The notes below the pieces were generated by a model. It saw only the letters and a list, made by a program, of their open reading frames with translations. It was not told the DNA's origin and searched no databases. Position numbers and translations under genes: made by a program. A stretch of 64,000 bases of DNA, taken from Thermoplasmata archaeon. GTDB lineage: Archaea > Thermoplasmatota > Thermoplasmata > Lutacidiplasmatales > SKW197. Shown piece after piece: positions 2,696 to 46,792 of the stretch. Numbering within the stretch: position 1 is the stretch's first letter; every line of letters starts with the position of its first letter. The stretch covers positions 62,001-126,000 of the forward strand of contig JAVZCK010000004.1 of NCBI GenBank assembly GCA_038874435.1. The letters are read 5' to 3'.

Positions 2696-4159
2696 CTATT
2701 TCTTCTTTTTCAATAATGCTAGAACATCTTTTACTTCCTCGATAATTTTTCCTCTGGTTAGTAGGTATATAGAAGTTGCATAACACACTGTAAAGGAGGC
2801 AATTTTTAGGATGAAAATCGTGAAAGAGATTTCACGAGAAAAGAATGTAATAAGTAAAATTGGACAAACTCCTATTATTGATGCTAGAAAAGAAGGAATT
2901 GATGTTTGCAAAACCTCTCTTATGTGAATGCTGATAATTTTATTTACAAAAGAGATTACCCATATAAACATAGGAAAACCAAATATCAGGTAAGTCAGAG
3001 CTACACCAACTGTACCGAAAAGTATGCAAAGGGGACATACAAATATCGCCACGATCAGAAGGCCAACTAAGGTTTGGAGGAAGTTTATTCTTACATTACC
3101 AGTGGAAACAATAATAGCTCCTGCAGGTACCCAAAGAATTGGAAGAATTGCAAATCCTGAGATTATGGTAAGAACTGGTATTGCTCCGTCCCATTTGGAA
3201 GTATTTCCTGCAAGTACAACTCTCACGAAATCAGGAGCGAGAAACATTAAACCGATGCAAACAGGGAACGCAAAGAGCGAAATATACTTGAGAGTAGTTA
3301 GATAACCTTTTCTCAAACGGTCTTTATTTCCTACCACTTTACAGTAGGTGGGAAACAGAACAGCATTCAACACACCACCGATTACGGATGGAATTACAAA
3401 ACCCCATGTCCATGCAACCTCATATGCTCCAAGTGATTCTGTTCCAAATGAATTCCCCACGACAAATTTCCCAATAGAAAGGGTTGCCCAATACATTATC
3501 CCAACAGCCAGCACATACTTCCCAAAGTTCAGCAGTTCCTTTGCCACTTTGACATCAAACACGAATTTTACTTTCCAGGAAACAAAAGAATACAGCACAA
3601 CCACTGTGATCAAGCCACCAGCAAGATTGCCAAAAACCACGCTCCAGTAGGAAAAACCGAGGAAGGCAAGAGCAATAACTAGAATTCCCTTACTCAGTCC
3701 TCCAGAGAGATTGGCAAGCACAATTTTGTTAAATTTCAATTCTCTAGTCAAGCGTACAGTGACCACAAATCCAGCAGATGTGAGGAAAAACTGCAAGCTT
3801 GCAATTCTGATCACATTTGTCAATCTTGGTTCAGCCATGAAATCTGCAACAAAAGGTGCTATGGAAAATACTGTTAGATAAAGCCCAGTTGCAAAAATCA
3901 GACGAAGGGTTGCGCCAGTGTAAAGTTCTTTTTCAATGTTTTCCTTTTGCTTTTGAATAATTGCAGCACTTAAACCAAAATCACCAAGAATCTCACCGAA
4001 TCCAATAAAAACCATTGCCATGCTCACTATTCCATACTCATCTGGAAACAACAACCTTGCCAGAACCAAAGAGGTTATCAGGGAGATGCCATAGCTTACA
4101 ACTCTGAGCAAACTCACCCACAGAATGTTCTTTGCTGTCTTTTCCTTAAGTCCCTGCAT
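2696..4159 (-). CDS. Polysaccharide flippase, Wzx/MATE-like (MOP superfamily)
   Basis: About 487 residues with 12-14 predicted membrane helices. The opening TAKNILWVSLLRVVSYGISL and the segment LARLLFPDEYGIVSMAMV are hallmarks of the polysaccharide biosynthesis/WzxC group. Such proteins move lipid-linked oligosaccharides across the cytoplasmic membrane. The gene overlaps the 3' end of rmlD, and the GT2 gene follows within about 40 bases, so all are probably on one transcript from a promoter before rmlA. ATG 4159 is preferred; an in-frame GTG lies at 4168. Function is confident at family level; the transported substrate is unknown. Confidence 0.88.
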   Translation of the reverse strand: MQGLKEKTAKNILWVSLLRVVSYGISLITSLVLARLLFPDEYGIVSMAMVFIGFGEILGDFGLSAAIIQKQKENIEKELYTGATLRLIFATGLYLTVFSIAPFVADFMAEPRLTNVIRIASLQFFLTSAGFVVTVRLTRELKFNKIVLANLSGGLSKGILVIALAFLGFSYWSVVFGNLAGGLITVVVLYSFVSWKVKFVFDVKVAKELLNFGKYVLAVGIMYWATLSIGKFVVGNSFGTESLGAYEVAWTWGFVIPSVIGGVLNAVLFPTYCKVVGNKDRLRKGYLTTLKYISLFAFPVCIGLMFLAPDFVRVVLAGNTSKWDGAIPVLTIISGFAILPILWVPAGAIIVSTGNVRINFLQTLVGLLIVAIFVCPLCILFGTVGVALTYLIFGFPMFIWVISFVNKIISIHIREVLQTSIPSFLASIIGVCPILLITFFSREISFTIFILKIASFTVCYATSIYLLTRGKIIEEVKDVLALLKKKK

Positions 4160-5012
4160 TGGTCTCACGCATTCTTACCAGCATTTCTCTGGTGGTTGGA
4201 ACCCTCAAAATTTTTTCAAGTTTTTCTGTATTCAAAGAGGAATTGACAGGTCTTTTAGCTGTGAAGTTTAGCTCACTTGAGTGAACATCTTTGACAAGAG
4301 CTTTATCCAACCTAAAAGCATCACAAATTTCATACACAAACTCCAACCTTGAGATTGCATTCCTGCTTCCACAATGGAAAATCCCTCTTACCTGCCTTTC
4401 AATCAATTTTTCTATCACTTCGGCACAAAAATCAACAAGCACAGGTGAGTAAATCAGGTCAGAAGCAATGGTTATCTCCTTCTCATTTCTCAATGACTCA
4501 TGCACCCAAGAGACGAAATTATGTTTTTGCCAGGTTTTTTTCCAGCCAAAGTTTCCACAACAGCGAAGGACACAGCCATTTCCGTAATCCAGGACAAACT
4601 TTTCACCCTCCAATTTGGTCTGCCCATAAACGCTTATCGGGTTAACTGGTTCTTCTTCTCTATAGTTGCCCTTTTCTCCATCAAACACATAATCGGTTGA
4701 GATGTAAACAATGTAGGCATTCCATTTTCTTGCAAAATCAACTGCATTTTTTGTGCCGACAACATTAATCTGATAAGCCAGTTCTGGTTCTTTTTCGCAT
4801 CTGTCAACATTTGTTAAAGCTGCAGTGTGAACAACAACATCCACTCTATTTATTCTCTCAAAATTTTCTTTTCTAGCAACATCTATTTCCACACAACTTC
4901 TATCGGGTATTTTTGATGAGTGACATGCTGGAATCACATTGTAAGTATTGGAAAGTTTAAGGTATGTGGCATAACCTAAAAGCCCTGCAGCACCTGTAAT
5001 TAGGATTTGCAT
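4146..5012 (-). CDS. rmlD: dTDP-4-dehydrorhamnose reductase (RmlD/RfbD)
   Basis: 288 residues, the normal length. It is an extended short-chain dehydrogenase: the NAD(P) glycine motif TGAAGLLG is at residues 6-13, the segment YISTDYVFDGEKGNY is typical of RmlD, and the catalytic Tyr/Lys occur in SVYGQTKLEGE. RmlD reduces dTDP-4-keto-L-rhamnose to dTDP-L-rhamnose, the last step of donor synthesis for surface glycans. It sits one base after rmlA in the same direction. RmlB and RmlC, needed between the two, are not in this window and must be encoded elsewhere if the pathway is complete. Confidence 0.92.
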   Translation of the reverse strand: MQILITGAAGLLGYATYLKLSNTYNVIPACHSSKIPDRSCVEIDVARKENFERINRVDVVVHTAALTNVDRCEKEPELAYQINVVGTKNAVDFARKWNAYIVYISTDYVFDGEKGNYREEEPVNPISVYGQTKLEGEKFVLDYGNGCVLRCCGNFGWKKTWQKHNFVSWVHESLRNEKEITIASDLIYSPVLVDFCAEVIEKLIERQVRGIFHCGSRNAISRLEFVYEICDAFRLDKALVKDVHSSELNFTAKRPVNSSLNTEKLEKILRVPTTREMLVRMRETNAGT

Positions 5013-6293: not shown

Positions 6294-7901
6294 ATGGAAA
6301 TGCAGATAATATTGAACTATCAGTATGGATTTCCCTGGTATAAATATAATAATACATATGTAAAGGGATATGTCATAAAAGAAAATAAACTTTGTCGAAA
6401 TCATGATTTTGCCCGTCTAATCGATAGTATAGATACCTTTTCGAAAATTGTTACAGCATTGAAATCCTTTCATGGGATCTTTGTGATAGTGACAAAAAAA
6501 GAGGAAAAAATTTATCTAGCTTCAGACATCACACGAACATTCCCTCTATTCTACACCATTCACAACAACACAGTATACATTTCAGATGATGCTTTTTATC
6601 TCCAGCAATTACTTAATCTAAAATTAGATTCAATATCATCAAATGAGTTTTTAAAGTGTGGTTATGTAACAGGAGATGCTACCTTACTGAAAAACTTAAG
6701 GCAACTTCAAGCAGGAGAGATTATAGAATTAAACTCGAGGAAATTTTTTAGGCGATTTTATCATAATTACACCGTCAAAAACGATGAACTTTCGACCTTA
6801 TCCGAGAAAGAACTACAATCTAATTTGTTAGATATCTTAACAAATGCAATAAGTAGACTTATTATTTTTGCGGCTGGTGCGCCTATTGTTGTTCCACTAA
6901 GTGGTGGGTTTGACTCAAGGCTAATCGTAGCTTTGCTAAAAATTCTTGGTTATAAAAATGTTATCTGCTATACTTACGGAAAAAGAGATAGCTCAGAAGT
7001 CCTTACGGCTCAAAAAGTATCGGAAAAATTGGGATATACATGGCACTTTGTGGAACAGAACGATAAGATAATTCCTAAAAACTATACGCATACTCAATGG
7101 TTTTATGATTTTTATAAATATGGTTTTAATTATGTCTCAACCCTTCACCTTCAGGACTTTTTTGTTTTTAAATTTTTGCATGAAAAAGAGAATATTTCTG
7201 AAAATAGCGTTATAGTGCCCGGACACAGTGGTGATTTCCTAGGAGGTTCACACATACGAAAATTACCGATACCAAAGAGTGTGAGAATGTGTCTTCATAC
7301 GCTTACTGTAAAACACTATGTGTTGAACGGACATGTGCCTATTGCTCCAGCAGTTAAGGAGAAAATATTTTCTTACATAACTAAGTGTGCTGCTCAGGGT
7401 TCTCTTCTCTATTCTATTGACGAGAATTGGAACTTGAAAGAAAGGCAAGCAAAATATATCATCAATTCTAACAGAACTTATGAGTTCTTCGGTTATAGGC
7501 ACGCTATTCCTCTATGGGACATAGATTTGGTAGAGTTCTTCAGAAGGTTACCACTCCATTATAAAGTAAATAAAAACCTATATGCAGACACAATAAAAGA
7601 ATATATTTTCAGACCTTTAGATATTATTTTTGACCAAAAAGCATTTGCAAAAGGATTTAAGTTAAAGTTATATTTCAAAATCGTCAAAGAATTACCGGTG
7701 ACACCGTATTTAAGGTATCTATTTGAGGTAGCCTGCCCATCTATCACAAGAATTCCAATAAAAAATCTTTTCCGTACCGACGAGAACAATTTTGCCTCTG
7801 TGCTGAATCCAATAATTATGGAACTTGGCAAAAGATACTATTTGATTAACACTCCAGGCCATGTAGCAGAATGGTGTTTAGCACACACAGGCATAAGCTG
7901 A
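6294..7901 (+). CDS. Asparagine-synthetase-like protein lacking the N-terminal cysteine
   Basis: 535 residues. Residues 50-160 resemble the class-II glutamine-amidotransferase fold of AsnB (FHGIFVIVTKKEEKIYLASD, then YISDD). The C-terminal half is an asparagine-synthase domain with the ATP pyrophosphatase loop PLSGGFDSR at 201-209 and VICYTYGKRDSSEV downstream. AsnB enzymes need Cys at position 2 to hydrolyse glutamine. Here the protein begins MEMQIILNYQ and has no early cysteine, so glutaminase activity is unlikely. Such variants occur in glycan and natural-product loci and may use free ammonia or another amine to form an amide through an adenylate. It is A/T-rich, faces opposite to its glycan-cluster neighbours, and is probably horizontally mobile. 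Catalytic role not known. Confidence 0.75.
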   Translation: MEMQIILNYQYGFPWYKYNNTYVKGYVIKENKLCRNHDFARLIDSIDTFSKIVTALKSFHGIFVIVTKKEEKIYLASDITRTFPLFYTIHNNTVYISDDAFYLQQLLNLKLDSISSNEFLKCGYVTGDATLLKNLRQLQAGEIIELNSRKFFRRFYHNYTVKNDELSTLSEKELQSNLLDILTNAISRLIIFAAGAPIVVPLSGGFDSRLIVALLKILGYKNVICYTYGKRDSSEVLTAQKVSEKLGYTWHFVEQNDKIIPKNYTHTQWFYDFYKYGFNYVSTLHLQDFFVFKFLHEKENISENSVIVPGHSGDFLGGSHIRKLPIPKSVRMCLHTLTVKHYVLNGHVPIAPAVKEKIFSYITKCAAQGSLLYSIDENWNLKERQAKYIINSNRTYEFFGYRHAIPLWDIDLVEFFRRLPLHYKVNKNLYADTIKEYIFRPLDIIFDQKAFAKGFKLKLYFKIVKELPVTPYLRYLFEVACPSITRIPIKNLFRTDENNFASVLNPIIMELGKRYYLINTPGHVAEWCLAHTGIS

Positions 7902-27098: not shown

Positions 27099-28112
27099 CT
27101 ATTTTACCCACTTTGATGCTCTTCTTTCCCACCAGTCAATTGCCTTATGCATCCCTCCTTCTATGGCGGCAATATTCATTCCAAAATGTCTAGCACTTAT
27201 TACTTGACGCATTGCAGTTTCATCAATCGTAATAGGCACTCTTGTGGTTCCATAGTATTTCAGCAATGGGCTTCCTTCTGCTCTCAGATTTTCTAAGTAG
27301 ACCAATGAGTAGTAGACATTTGTTACTAAACTTGCAATCAGAGCGATCCCAACAATAGTAGTTAGTGCAAAAATGATCAGCACAATGATAATTCCAAGCC
27401 ATACGACCTCACCTACTACCGATGAAAGCAAGAATCCGAGACCTATTATTCCAAAGATCCCAATGAAAAGGACAGCAACAGCCACATAACCTATCACATC
27501 TGATATAATTATCCCGAACAAAGCAGGGACTACATTCTTACGCACAAGGGAGACACTTCTCTTAAGTGCCTTTGCCATTGGCATCTCTTCGATTACGATA
27601 GCACATACCGTGAATACTGTGAGAAACTGGTAGACCTTGGCAATTATATTAATAGCGACCTTACCTGCAAGCTGAACCCCTATGGAAGCTTTTCCTAATG
27701 CTTGAGTGGCAACTGCAAGAGCGCCTGTAAACAAGGTAGTAAGTAATGCAAATTTGAACAGGGCACCCCAATTCCCCTTGAGATTGTCTAATAGTCCCTC
27801 TTCTCTTCCGATTTCTGATGCATATACTGCAGCCACAATCATTCCCTGGTAAACATAAATTACGAGATATGAGAAGAGCCATAAGAGAAAGAGGTCCACA
27901 ATTACAGTGGCAATTAGCATATGGAAGGCGATGTCGGTAGGGTTTCTTATAACCCAGAGAATTTCTAAGATGGTTCCAAGCACGAGTGGAAGGATTAACA
28001 GAAGCCACAAACCTGCAGCTAACAGAGGAATTTTGAAGATTTTTGGGTGCGCTTTCACATATTTCCAGGCCTCCCTGAAATAATGCCAAGATATCTTCCA
28101 ACTCTCGAACAT
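27099..28112 (-). CDS. Multi-pass membrane protein, DUF6159-like, function unknown
   Basis: 337 residues with about six hydrophobic helices: two at 30-95, two around 120-180, and two at 205-265. It opens with a soluble amphipathic stretch MFESWKISWHYFREAWKYVK and ends with a soluble tail of about 65 residues that includes KYYGTTRVPITIDETAMRQV. That helical arrangement and the internal PMAKALKRSVSLVRKN segment resemble proteins annotated as DUF6159 or related glycerophosphoryl-diester membrane domains; I am not certain of the family. No catalytic residues can be proposed. It is a single gene facing the interrupted TspO-like gene. Confidence 0.55.
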   Translation of the reverse strand: MFESWKISWHYFREAWKYVKAHPKIFKIPLLAAGLWLLLILPLVLGTILEILWVIRNPTDIAFHMLIATVIVDLFLLWLFSYLVIYVYQGMIVAAVYASEIGREEGLLDNLKGNWGALFKFALLTTLFTGALAVATQALGKASIGVQLAGKVAINIIAKVYQFLTVFTVCAIVIEEMPMAKALKRSVSLVRKNVVPALFGIIISDVIGYVAVAVLFIGIFGIIGLGFLLSSVVGEVVWLGIIIVLIIFALTTIVGIALIASLVTNVYYSLVYLENLRAEGSPLLKYYGTTRVPITIDETAMRQVISARHFGMNIAAIEGGMHKAIDWWERRASKWVK

Positions 28113-28173: not shown

Positions 28174-28533
28174 GACGAGCAACTGGAATAGAAAACCAAG
28201 GTTGCGAGTAAGACGGGCAAAACAGAATAGAACGGGCCCGTCGGGACGAGCAACTGGGAAACAAAACCAAGGTTGCGAGTAAGACGGGCAAAACAGAATA
28301 GAACGGGCCCGTCGGGACGAGCAACTGGGAAACAAAACCAAGGTTGCGAGTAAGACGGGCTAAAACAGAATAGAACGGGCCCGTCGGGACGAGCAACTGG
28401 GAAACAAAACTAAGGTTGCGAGTAAGACGGGCTAAAACAGAATAGAACGGGCCCGTCGGGACGAGCAACTGGGAAACAAAACCAAGGTTGCGAGTAAGAC
28501 GGGCTAAAACAGAATAGAACGGGCCCGTCGGGA
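28174..28533 (-). repeat. Five tandem repeats of 71-72 bp built on the tRNA-Arg 3' end
   Basis: GGGCCCGTCGGGA recurs at 28234, 28305, 28377, 28449 and 28521, spaced 71, 72, 72 and 72 bases. Between them lies a nearly identical core (ACGAGCAACTGGGAAACAAA, then GGTTGCGAGTAAGACGGGC). The copy farthest from the tRNA is the most divergent. On the minus strand each unit starts with the last 14 bases of the tRNA (T-stem 3' side, acceptor strand and discriminator) and then a T-rich TTCTATTCTGTTTT, so each looks like a duplicated tRNA end plus its 3' flank. ACGGGCCCGT is a 10-base palindrome, and GACGGGC/GCCCGTC can form a 7-bp stem. The array fills the gap between the tRNA and the membrane-protein gene; I see no protein gene in it. 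Confidence 0.9.
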
Positions 28534-28594
28534 TTTGAACCCGAGACCCCTGGCTTAGAAGGCCAGTGCTATATCCTGTCTAAGCTACGAGCCC
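28520..28594 (-). tRNA. tRNA-Arg (anticodon TCT)
   Basis: 75 bases, no intron. The acceptor GGGCTCG pairs with CGGGCCC (one G-U pair) with discriminator G. The anticodon stem CTGGC/GCCAG encloses the loop CTTCTAA, giving TCT for AGA codons. The T-arm TCGGG-TTCAAAT-CCCGA is perfect. CCA is not encoded. The bases from the T-stem to the discriminator recur in every downstream repeat unit. Confidence 0.95.
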
Positions 28595-43673: not shown

Positions 43674-46600
43674 CTACACTTTTTCAATCTCTTTCTTTAC
43701 TCGCTCTATCCATGCTCTGTTTTCAATTTTCTCAAAGAAAGTCAGCGTCTCCATGAGTAACTCTTTTTCATTTTTAACCTTCCCTAACTCGAACAGGATT
43801 TTGTAATACTCGATATCCAATCTGCCCACTGTTTCATACATGTCAATTGCCTTCTTTAGCTCGAGCTCTGCCTCTGCGATTTTTCCCTCACTTGCAAGGA
43901 GTATGCCAGATACAGACAAAAACTCCGCATCAATAGGTTTCGCAGCAAGTTCCACTACAAATTTCTTTGCCTCCCTAAGCATCTCATTTGCAGATTCAAA
44001 ATTTCCCATACCCACATAACACCTAGCGATCCCCAACAAACTCTTGCAAATCTCAGATTTGTCTTTAACTTCCTTCGCAATTTCAAGGGCTTTTTGCAGT
44101 GCCTCCAAACCTTTGTGAAACTCACCTAATTCATAATGAATCATACCTATGTTGAAGTAGTTTATACTCATGCCCCAAACATCTCCAATCTTCTTCCGTA
44201 ATTCTAAACTTTTATTATATAACTCAAGTGCCTTTTCGTAATGTCCTCTCATGTAGTAAATACTCCCAGCGTTGTTGTAGCTCATCGCAATGCCCCAAAC
44301 ATCTCCAATTTTTTCCTTCACCTCCAAACTTTTTTTGTGGAACTCTAATGCCTTTTCAAGCTCACCACTTTCGCCGTAAGCAATGGCAATGTTGTTATAT
44401 CCTGCCGAGATGCCACGCACATCGCCTATCTTTTCAACTAATTCCAAACTTTTTTTGTGGAATTCTAATGCTTTTTCATTCTCTCCTTTCTCATGGTAAA
44501 CAATAGCAATGTTGTTATAGCTTCCTGCTATTCCTCTTAAATCACTTATTTTCTCACGAATTCTCAGAGCATCAGTGAACAATTGAAGGGCCTTGTCATA
44601 CTCTCCCAGATACAAATAGCATGTGCCCATTCTGTGGATAACATTACCCAACTCTTTTTCTACTCTCGCTTTCTTAAACACTTGCTCGGCTTTTTCTTGG
44701 GCTTCGATTGCGCTTTTATAGTCTCCTTTCCGCTCGTAGATGAGCCCTTTTGCACTCCATACTCTTGCCAATTCAAGTTCAGATTTGGTCGTTTCGGAAA
44801 GCACTTGCTCTGCTTGCTCCGCCTCTACAATCGCATTTTCATAATCTCCCTTCTGGATATAAATTTCACATCTCTTTCTATAACTTTTTCCTGCCTCTAA
44901 TGGCTTTTCTGTGATGAGGGCAGAGATTCGAATTTTAAGAATTTCCAGGGCCTCATCATATCTTCCAGTTAGCTCTAGTACCTCTGCAATTTCACCTAGA
45001 ACCTGCAGTTTTAGTTCTTTGTAGCCCTCTTCTTCTTTCATTGCCTCTAGCACCGCTTTGTAAAACCTGATGCTTTCTTCATTTGCGAATCTCTTCTTTG
45101 CAAGTTTCCCAGCGGACAAGCCATATTCAATAACTTTATCACTGCGCATTGCCTTTGAGTAATGATAAACAACATCCGCTAAAACATCAGCATTCCCAGC
45201 TTTGTAATTTTCTTCAAGGATTTGGCCTGCAATCTCATGGTAGATTTTTCTTAACTCATCCGCCATTTCTGCATAAAGCACTTCTCTTATCTTTCCATGC
45301 TCAAATTTGTATTTTGATTTCAATGCTCTGATTAGTTTGTGTGCCCGTTCAACGCTCACAAGCATTTTTACAACCTGGATATAAGGGAGCTCAGTTAGTT
45401 TTGCAACCATTTGGGATGTGAATTCCTCACCCAGAATACTTGCTGCATCTAGGAGATCTCGTTCTTCTTTCGCTAATCTCTCAATTCTCCTCAAAACAAT
45501 CTCGTAAACTTTTTTTGGAATTTGCAATGTGTCCAGATGGTAGTGCCACTTTCCGCCCTCTAAATACAACTGCTTTTCTTCATACAGGTTCTTCAGAATC
45601 TCCACAACAAAGAAGGTGTTGCCCTCTGTCTCCCTGTAAATTTTTTCTGTAAACTCCTGAGCAATCTCAGTGCCAAGCACACTGCAAATCAGGGCATGGC
45701 ATACTTCCTTGTCCAGCCGCTTTAACTCAACCTTTTCAAGTAACTCCTCTTTTTCCATCTTCTCCATTGCCTCAACGAGGGGGTGCCTCTTTTCATCATG
45801 CTTCGCTACAATCTCCTCAATTCTGTAAGTGCCAACAATAAGAACCGCATTTTTTCTTGTGTTCCTGGCTATGTAATGCAACATCGCTAAACTTGAGGGG
45901 TCGCTCCATTGCAAATCGTCTATGAAAATCAGCACTGGCTTCTGCTCTGCCTTTCTTTGCAAACCCCTTGTAACATTCTCGAACAAATTTGCCTGTCTTA
46001 TTTTTGCATCCTCCTCTGCATAATCGACGCCTTCGTATTTTCCTCTTAAAAAGAGGGTTTTGAGCTTGTCCTCAATTGCAGCAATTTGAGAGGCCTCTAT
46101 CGTCTCAAGCCCTCCACATAACTCCTTTTCAATATCTTCCAGAATTTCCCGCAGGTCAGAAATCAGATATTCATTTTCTCTCCCAGTGGTAACTGCCACA
46201 AGGTTCAGCAACTTGCCAGGTACATTCGTGATGAAAAAATTTCCATAACCCATGTGGCCAATTTGCTCAGTCACCTCTCTTGCCTGCATCTGGGCAATTG
46301 AGTCCTTCACAAAGGTTTCCACTGCTGTCACCATGCCCATAAAAATGTCAGAGTCCGTTGTCTCCTTCCGCTCATACTTTGCAATTATTATTCCACCTTT
46401 TTTCACACAATAAATTCCCTCTATTTTCGGTGGCTTTGTTTCAGTAAGCAGATGTTCCAATTCTGCGTCTTTCAGAATCTCAGAAATGGGTGTGTAAGGA
46501 GCTAAGGACTCAAGAAAGCACTGGCTCCTGAAAACCTGAAATCCAGCTTGTTCTGCAATTCCAATCAATTCCTCAACGAGCCGTGTCTTTCCAACACCAC

Positions 46601-46721
46601 TCTCTCCTCCGATAAAAACGGTCAAGCCAGCTCTTCGTTCTACCTTTTCCAATTTTCCTTTGAGAAACGCAAGTTCTTTTTCCCTTGCTACGAATTCTGG
46701 AGGAATGTGAAGTGAAGACAT
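43674..46721 (-). CDS. Large AAA ATPase-TPR protein with longin/roadblock-like insertion
   Basis: About 1015 residues. Order: Walker A GGESGVGKTRL (38-48); an insertion at about 100-205 (IEGIYCVKKGGIIIAKYERK, DIFMGMVTAVETFVKD, LLNLVAVTTGRENEYLISDL) with the beta-strand and helix pattern of roadblock/longin sensor domains; Walker B VLIFIDDLQWSD (265-276); a helical AAA/MalT-type region; and about twelve TPRs, several nearly identical (YNNIAIVYHEKGENEKALEF). The ATPase class (STAND-like, DUF2791/MalT) binds signals and partner proteins. No DNA-binding domain is visible, so the output is unknown. A TATA-like element 26 bases before ATG 46721 supports that start over 46784. Confidence 0.8.
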   Translation of the reverse strand: MSSLHIPPEFVAREKELAFLKGKLEKVERRAGLTVFIGGESGVGKTRLVEELIGIAEQAGFQVFRSQCFLESLAPYTPISEILKDAELEHLLTETKPPKIEGIYCVKKGGIIIAKYERKETTDSDIFMGMVTAVETFVKDSIAQMQAREVTEQIGHMGYGNFFITNVPGKLLNLVAVTTGRENEYLISDLREILEDIEKELCGGLETIEASQIAAIEDKLKTLFLRGKYEGVDYAEEDAKIRQANLFENVTRGLQRKAEQKPVLIFIDDLQWSDPSSLAMLHYIARNTRKNAVLIVGTYRIEEIVAKHDEKRHPLVEAMEKMEKEELLEKVELKRLDKEVCHALICSVLGTEIAQEFTEKIYRETEGNTFFVVEILKNLYEEKQLYLEGGKWHYHLDTLQIPKKVYEIVLRRIERLAKEERDLLDAASILGEEFTSQMVAKLTELPYIQVVKMLVSVERAHKLIRALKSKYKFEHGKIREVLYAEMADELRKIYHEIAGQILEENYKAGNADVLADVVYHYSKAMRSDKVIEYGLSAGKLAKKRFANEESIRFYKAVLEAMKEEEGYKELKLQVLGEIAEVLELTGRYDEALEILKIRISALITEKPLEAGKSYRKRCEIYIQKGDYENAIVEAEQAEQVLSETTKSELELARVWSAKGLIYERKGDYKSAIEAQEKAEQVFKKARVEKELGNVIHRMGTCYLYLGEYDKALQLFTDALRIREKISDLRGIAGSYNNIAIVYHEKGENEKALEFHKKSLELVEKIGDVRGISAGYNNIAIAYGESGELEKALEFHKKSLEVKEKIGDVWGIAMSYNNAGSIYYMRGHYEKALELYNKSLELRKKIGDVWGMSINYFNIGMIHYELGEFHKGLEALQKALEIAKEVKDKSEICKSLLGIARCYVGMGNFESANEMLREAKKFVVELAAKPIDAEFLSVSGILLASEGKIAEAELELKKAIDMYETVGRLDIEYYKILFELGKVKNEKELLMETLTFFEKIENRAWIERVKKEIEKV

Positions 46722-46792
46722 CTGTGGAGTGTAGACGAATTGGATATTTATCAATTTGGTTAAGGACTGCCGGGGAGTAATCAAAGCATGTT

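What the first reader, a model, noticed from the sequence alone, without database searches (positions are those of the whole stretch)
28174..28594. Five tandem 72-bp repeats each carrying the 3' end of tRNA-Arg
Every unit begins, on the tRNA strand, with the last 14 bases of the tRNA (T-stem strand, acceptor strand, discriminator) followed by the same T-rich flank. The copy farthest from the tRNA is most diverged. Such arrays could be residual attachment sites of integrative elements, products of repeated excision and insertion, or a run of short structured RNAs released after the tRNA. Each unit also has a 10-base palindrome and can form stems.
Basis: seen in the sequence. Interest (0 to 1): 0.68.

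Follow-up and report, generated by a model that had tools for sequence, protein, structure and literature searches.

The report
Tandem repeats copied from a tRNA tail
Behind an arginine tRNA gene of a little-known archaeon, a 72-base stretch that includes the last 14 bases of the tRNA has been duplicated into a short tandem array; it looks like an ordinary DNA duplication that then served as a spot where two arginine tRNA genes recombined and exchanged neighbours, much as seen downstream of a tyrosine tRNA pair in E. coli.

Summary
In detail: 28174-28533 holds five units (71, 71, 72, 72, 72 bp) directly downstream of tRNA-Arg(UCU). The tRNA's last 14 bases recur four more times. The distal unit is the most diverged.

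The host is a Thermoplasmata archaeon. The same unit occurs once more in the genome (1.6 copies), behind tRNA-Arg(CCG). The only congener held (JAOAJK01, SKW197) has half a unit behind tRNA-Arg(UCU). It is absent from 59 same-order genomes outside the genus, and the matching pattern finds nothing else in 84,980 species genomes.

No integrase lies nearby; each genome has one tyrosine recombinase gene, elsewhere. No RNA family other than the tRNA matches.

Synteny shows the two tRNA-Arg genes exchanged downstream neighbours between the species, with the junction at the shared tRNA tail/half-unit. The best reading is a microhomology-bounded tandem duplication, then homologous recombination between the two tRNA-Arg genes. 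Function as RNA is unproven.

E. coli K-12 tyrTV (3.1 x 178 bp, each unit beginning with the last 19 nt of tRNA-Tyr) is an exact architectural precedent. One oddity: the repeated 14 nt equal the 3' exon of a T-loop intron found in sister and relative tRNA-Arg genes.

The parts
28520..28594 (-). tRNA-Arg, anticodon TCT, intronless
   Evidence: ARAGORN; Rfam RF00005, 65 bits
28621..28633 (-). putative TATA region of the tRNA gene (AAAGTTTAAATCC), about 27-39 nt upstream of the tRNA 5' end, conserved in the congener
   Evidence: Seen in sequence; promoter role inferred
28460..28531 (-). repeat unit 1 (72 bp, nearest the tRNA; overlaps the tRNA's own tail, 28520-28533)
28388..28459 (-). repeat unit 2 (72 bp; one base change)
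28316..28387 (-). repeat unit 3 (72 bp, identical to unit 1)
28245..28315 (-). repeat unit 4 (71 bp, one base shorter)
28174..28244 (-). repeat unit 5 (71 bp, farthest, 94% to the query), running into unique sequence TTAAACTC
28448..28461 (-). extra copy 1 of the tRNA 3' 14 nt (TCCCGACGGGCCCG)
   Evidence: offset +58
28376..28389 (-). extra copy 2 of the tRNA 3' 14 nt
   Evidence: offset +130
28304..28317 (-). extra copy 3 of the tRNA 3' 14 nt
   Evidence: offset +202
28233..28246 (-). extra copy 4 of the tRNA 3' 14 nt
   Evidence: offset +273
27099..28112 (-). 337-aa membrane protein gene downstream of the array, same direction as the tRNA; a truncated relative lies directly behind tRNA-Arg(CCG) in the congener
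   Evidence: ORF, sub-cut-off match to GPDPase_memb, congener fragment

Best explanation
It is a short minisatellite made by tandem duplication of a 72-bp segment that runs from the T-arm of tRNA-Arg into its 3' flank. The duplication joint reads ...GTTGCTCG|TC|CCGACGG. The distal unit continues ...GTTGCTCG|TC|TTAAAC and the tRNA reads ...CAAA|TC|CCGACGG, so the joint needs only a 2-bp TC microhomology; further copies follow by unequal exchange or slippage. The 14-bp tRNA tail plus a conserved 33-bp half unit then gave homology between tRNA-Arg(UCU) and tRNA-Arg(CCG). Recombination there exchanged their downstream neighbours between the two sister species and left 1.6 units behind tRNA-Arg(CCG). 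Shown: repeat structure, second locus, half unit in the congener, exchanged flanks with the junction at the tail. Inferred: order of events, homologous recombination as the agent, and lack of a selected function. If transcribed as tRNA trailer, the units would add T-rich stretches and hairpins, perhaps helping termination; this is untested.
For: Array and joint sequences. Second locus C31:6973-7088, tRNA-Arg(CCG) - first half - second half - tail - first half - MFS. Congener G001 has UCU - half unit - MFS, and CCG followed directly by the truncated 337-aa gene and ATP synthase. Block map C22 versus C4/C31 puts the change at the tRNA tail. Half-unit position 3 is A in C31 and G001 but C in all C4 units, as expected if the MFS-side half unit is orthologous. 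Only the two tRNA-Arg genes of G000, and no tRNA of G001, have downstream tail copies within 700 bp (33 and 35 tRNAs). Flank changes are common at tRNA genes between these genomes: 14 of 29 usable orthologous tRNAs against 11 of 80 random points. E. coli tyrTV shows the same architecture.
Against: The upstream flank of tRNA-Arg(UCU) also differs between species, so more than one rearrangement is needed. The unit starts at the position of a T-loop splice site, which duplication explains only as coincidence. An 18-bp core (GCCCGTCTTACTCgCAAC) is 94-100% conserved at three loci while its neighbourhood diverges, which could mean selection. Only two genomes of the family are held.
Confidence: 0.72

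Rival explanations
1. The array is a run of short structured RNAs transcribed as the tRNA trailer and released by processing, analogous to RttR of E. coli or other tRNA trailer RNAs; each unit is a 54-nt hairpin closed by GCCCGTC/GACGGGC with an 18-nt U-rich linker.
For: Unit folds better than shuffles (z -4.0). Tail strand GACGGGC is complementary to GCCCGTC in all loci. Array lies in sense direction after the tRNA. 18-bp core conserved in the congener.
Against: The hairpin's 3' arm is missing in G001 and in the last C31 unit, and the C31 hairpin is weaker (z -2.0). The fold is stronger on the strand opposite the tRNA (z -6.3). Only the tRNA matches Rfam. No expression data.
Confidence: 0.13
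2. The tails are remnants of attachment sites of integrative elements that entered the tRNA 3' end repeatedly.
For: The tRNA 3' end is a classical target, and the tails match the tRNA exactly.
Against: Only 58 bp between tails, no cargo genes. One PF00589 recombinase gene per genome, on another contig. No exact core in IMG/VR. Flanking genes are iron regulation, FeoB, MCM and ATP synthase.
Confidence: 0.04
3. The array began at RNA level: the 3' exon plus trailer released by splicing of a T-loop-intron tRNA-Arg was circularised, copied in tandem and recombined into the locus, which also removed the intron from tRNA-Arg(UCU).
For: The repeated 14 nt equal the 3' exon of tRNA-Arg(CCG) here (intron fold z -5.0) and the exon position in tRNA-Arg(UCU) of many same-order relatives. 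UCU lacks the intron in this genus.
Against: No bulge-helix-bulge can form at unit tails by inspection. tRNA-Arg(CCG) keeps its intron although it also carries the array. E. coli has the same kind of array with no introns. The 2-bp microhomology makes the boundary uncertain by two bases.
Confidence: 0.04
4. Assembly artefact: copy number inflated or units misjoined.
For: Draft assembly in 43 contigs; units 1 and 3 are identical.
Against: Units carry distinguishing variants. An independent contig (C31) has the unit joined to another tRNA, and another MAG has half of it.
Confidence: 0.04

Closest known systems
E. coli tyrTV distal repeats (RttR/RtT RNA region, Rfam RF00391)
   Same: Directly downstream of a tRNA gene; tandem units each beginning with the exact 3' end of that tRNA (19 nt of tRNA-Tyr, 178-bp unit, 3.1 copies).
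   Different: Archaeal, 72-bp unit, tail of 14 nt without CCA, no sequence or RtT homology, no conserved small ORF; shared between two isoacceptor tRNA genes with exchanged flanks.
tRNA-targeted integrative elements (attL/attR direct repeats)
   Same: Exact copies of a tRNA 3' end downstream of the gene.
   Different: No integrase, no cargo, 58-bp spacing, five-fold tandem.
Homologous exchange between paralogous tRNA genes and archaeal tRNA intron transposition (from own knowledge, Thermoproteales)
   Same: Two tRNA-Arg genes share 3' segments; the T-loop intron sits in CCG here and in UCU in most relatives examined.
   Different: Here the exchange also involves a tandem array and swapped downstream genes.

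Membership tests
tyrT-type tRNA-tail tandem repeats | tandem units directly behind a tRNA gene, each starting with its exact 3' end | tested here: met
   E. coli comparison
RtT RNA family (RF00391) | sequence and structure match to the RtT covariance model | tested here: not met
   no match in this genome, match in the E. coli control
tyrT-type tRNA-tail tandem repeats | small basic protein gene (tpr-like) in the repeats (seen in E. coli, not essential to the kind) | tested here: not met
   A 115-aa frame runs through the array because 72 is a multiple of 3, but it has no Pfam match and its frame shifts at the 71-bp units
tyrT-type tRNA-tail tandem repeats | discrete RNA released from the tRNA transcript | not testable with these tools
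   needs RNA data
integrative element attachment sites | integrase gene at or near the site | tested here: not met
   single PF00589 gene, on contig C1
integrative element attachment sites | tRNA 3' end duplicated as direct repeat | tested here: met
integrative element attachment sites | cargo between the repeats | tested here: not met
   58 bp only
known structured RNA family | match to an Rfam model | tested here: not met
   only the tRNA matches

The most novel reading that the evidence does not exclude
The array records an RNA-level event: 3' exon plus trailer of a T-loop-intron tRNA-Arg was circularised by the tRNA splicing machinery, copied in tandem into DNA and recombined into the gene, creating the array and removing the intron of tRNA-Arg(UCU) in one step.
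Probability: 0.04. Interest if true: 0.75.

Novelty: new member of a known kind. Interest (0 to 1): 0.33.

Why it matters
It adds an archaeal case to a pattern seen in E. coli, tRNA tails multiplied in tandem behind the gene, and gives a clear example of two isoacceptor tRNA genes exchanging 3' neighbours. Together with flank changes at about half of the orthologous tRNA genes in this genus, it supports tRNA 3' ends as recombination joints without needing an integrase.

Tried and rejected
Simple excision of the 78-kb segment between the two tRNA-Arg genes (direct repeats in the congener): rejected, because the region upstream of tRNA-Arg(UCU) in this genome lies inside that segment in the congener. 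Integrase-driven array: rejected. Viral origin: no exact core match in IMG/VR. Trans-splicing to repeated 3' exons: rejected by inspection, the four bases needed for the central helix (GGAA/TGAA) are absent before the unit tails. Other tail pairs in 400 class genomes (G305, G177) have no tRNA nearby. Outgroup polarity from the 337-aa gene failed: no relative outside the genus in 39 genomes. Literature searches on tyrT/rttR, tRNA rearrangement breakpoints and T-loop intron transposition returned nothing directly relevant in the open library.

Full report
Observation. The window lies in G000 contig C4 (62001-126000) of a 2.16-Mb draft archaeal genome. The only congener held, G001, matches JAOAJK01 'Thermoplasmata archaeon SKW197'. 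The array at 28174-28533 is real and far beyond chance: TRF score 678, five units, 97% matches. It sits directly behind tRNA-Arg(TCT) at 28520-28594 on the minus strand. The last 14 nt of the tRNA recur at +58, +130, +202 and +273.

Copies elsewhere. The 72-bp unit is found once more in the genome, at C31:6973-7088, directly behind tRNA-Arg(CCG), in the order tail - first half - second half - tail - first half - MFS gene. In the congener, tRNA-Arg(TCT) is followed by one half unit and then by the orthologous MFS gene (88% identity). Its tRNA-Arg(CCG) is followed at once by a truncated relative of the 337-aa gene and by ATP synthase. No match to the unit occurs in 59 same-order genomes outside the genus. 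The pattern tail plus core finds only the congener in 84,980 species genomes (the tool may leave out the window's own genome). No viral contig holds the exact core.

Exchange. Mapping G001 contig C22 on G000 C4 and C31 shows that the block ending in tRNA-Arg(CCG) is the same in both species, while what follows is swapped: MFS in one, 337-aa gene and ATP synthase in the other. The change lies at the tRNA tail. The upstream side of tRNA-Arg(TCT) also differs, so at least one further rearrangement occurred and a simple excision of the intervening 78 kb is excluded. In half-unit position 3, C31 and G001 share A while all C4 units have C, consistent with an orthologous MFS-side half unit.

Wider pattern. 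Among 30 orthologous tRNA pairs, 15 keep both 600-bp flanks. Leaving out one pair cut by a contig end, 14 of 29 have a changed flank. Random points on one contig pair show 11 of 80 changed (Fisher p = 3e-4). The control points are 500 bp apart and come from a single contig, so the figure is rough. tRNA genes are thus frequent rearrangement joints here, and the arginine pair is one case.

Origin of the array. By inspection, the joint between units (GCTCG-TC-CCGACGG) can arise from the distal end (GCTCG-TC-TTAAAC) and the tRNA (CAAA-TC-CCGACGG) with two bases of microhomology. That is an ordinary tandem duplication whose one end fell in the T-arm.

Integrase and RNA readings. Each genome has one PF00589 gene, of about 300 aa, on another contig; it may be the chromosomal Xer recombinase (inference). 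Only the tRNA matches Rfam. The unit folds with z -4.0 on the tRNA strand and -6.3 on the other strand; the C31 unit only reaches -2.0, and the congener lacks the second half altogether. A conserved hairpin RNA is therefore not supported, though the 18-bp core is well conserved.

Precedent. In E. coli K-12 the tyrTV tRNA genes are followed by 3.1 repeats of 178 bp, each starting with the exact last 19 nt of tRNA-Tyr, with RttR RNA and tpr annotated inside. RF00391 does not match this archaeon. The architecture is the same kind; the sequence is unrelated.

Splice-site coincidence. tRNA-Arg(CCG) here and in the congener carries a T-loop insert of about 32-33 nt that folds into an 11-bp hairpin (z -5.0). 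By inspection it fits a relaxed bulge-helix-bulge, giving the 3' exon TCCCGACGGGCCCG. In many same-order relatives tRNA-Arg(TCT), not CCG, has an intron at that place, while CCG is mostly intronless (some genomes of one genus do have an intron in CCG). The 14 nt that start every unit are exactly this exon, within the two bases of joint ambiguity. I count this as coincidence or as a trace of past exchange between the two genes; an RNA-templated origin is possible but unlikely.

Noticed in passing
L008, about 4078-4184 (G000:C31:about 7077-7183, minus strand): tRNA-Arg(CCG) with a T-loop intron of about 32 nt, missed by ARAGORN; the same intron position is used in tRNA-Arg(TCT) of most same-order relatives examined, while TCT is intronless in this genus.
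   Followed up: partly
G000 versus G001, 30 orthologous tRNA genes: About half of the orthologous tRNA genes have a changed flank within 600 bp, against about 14% of random points: tRNA genes look like rearrangement joints in this genus.
   Followed up: partly
L052, L053, L066, L067 and G000:C5:84395 (tRNA trailers in G000/G001): Several other tRNA genes are followed by a different shared motif, roughly AACCCTTTT...AAGCGTTcACGG; the words tested do not occur in the window itself; perhaps an interspersed palindromic repeat.
   Followed up: no
44271-44522: 2.1 copies of a 120-bp tandem repeat (73% match) inside a 1036-aa ORF (43674-46784, minus); looks like tetratricopeptide-type repeats of the protein, ordinary.
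   Followed up: no
G001:C22:133967-134182 (L074): The congener has only a C-terminal remnant of the 337-aa membrane protein, starting almost directly behind tRNA-Arg(CCG), as if the exchange truncated the gene.
   Followed up: partly
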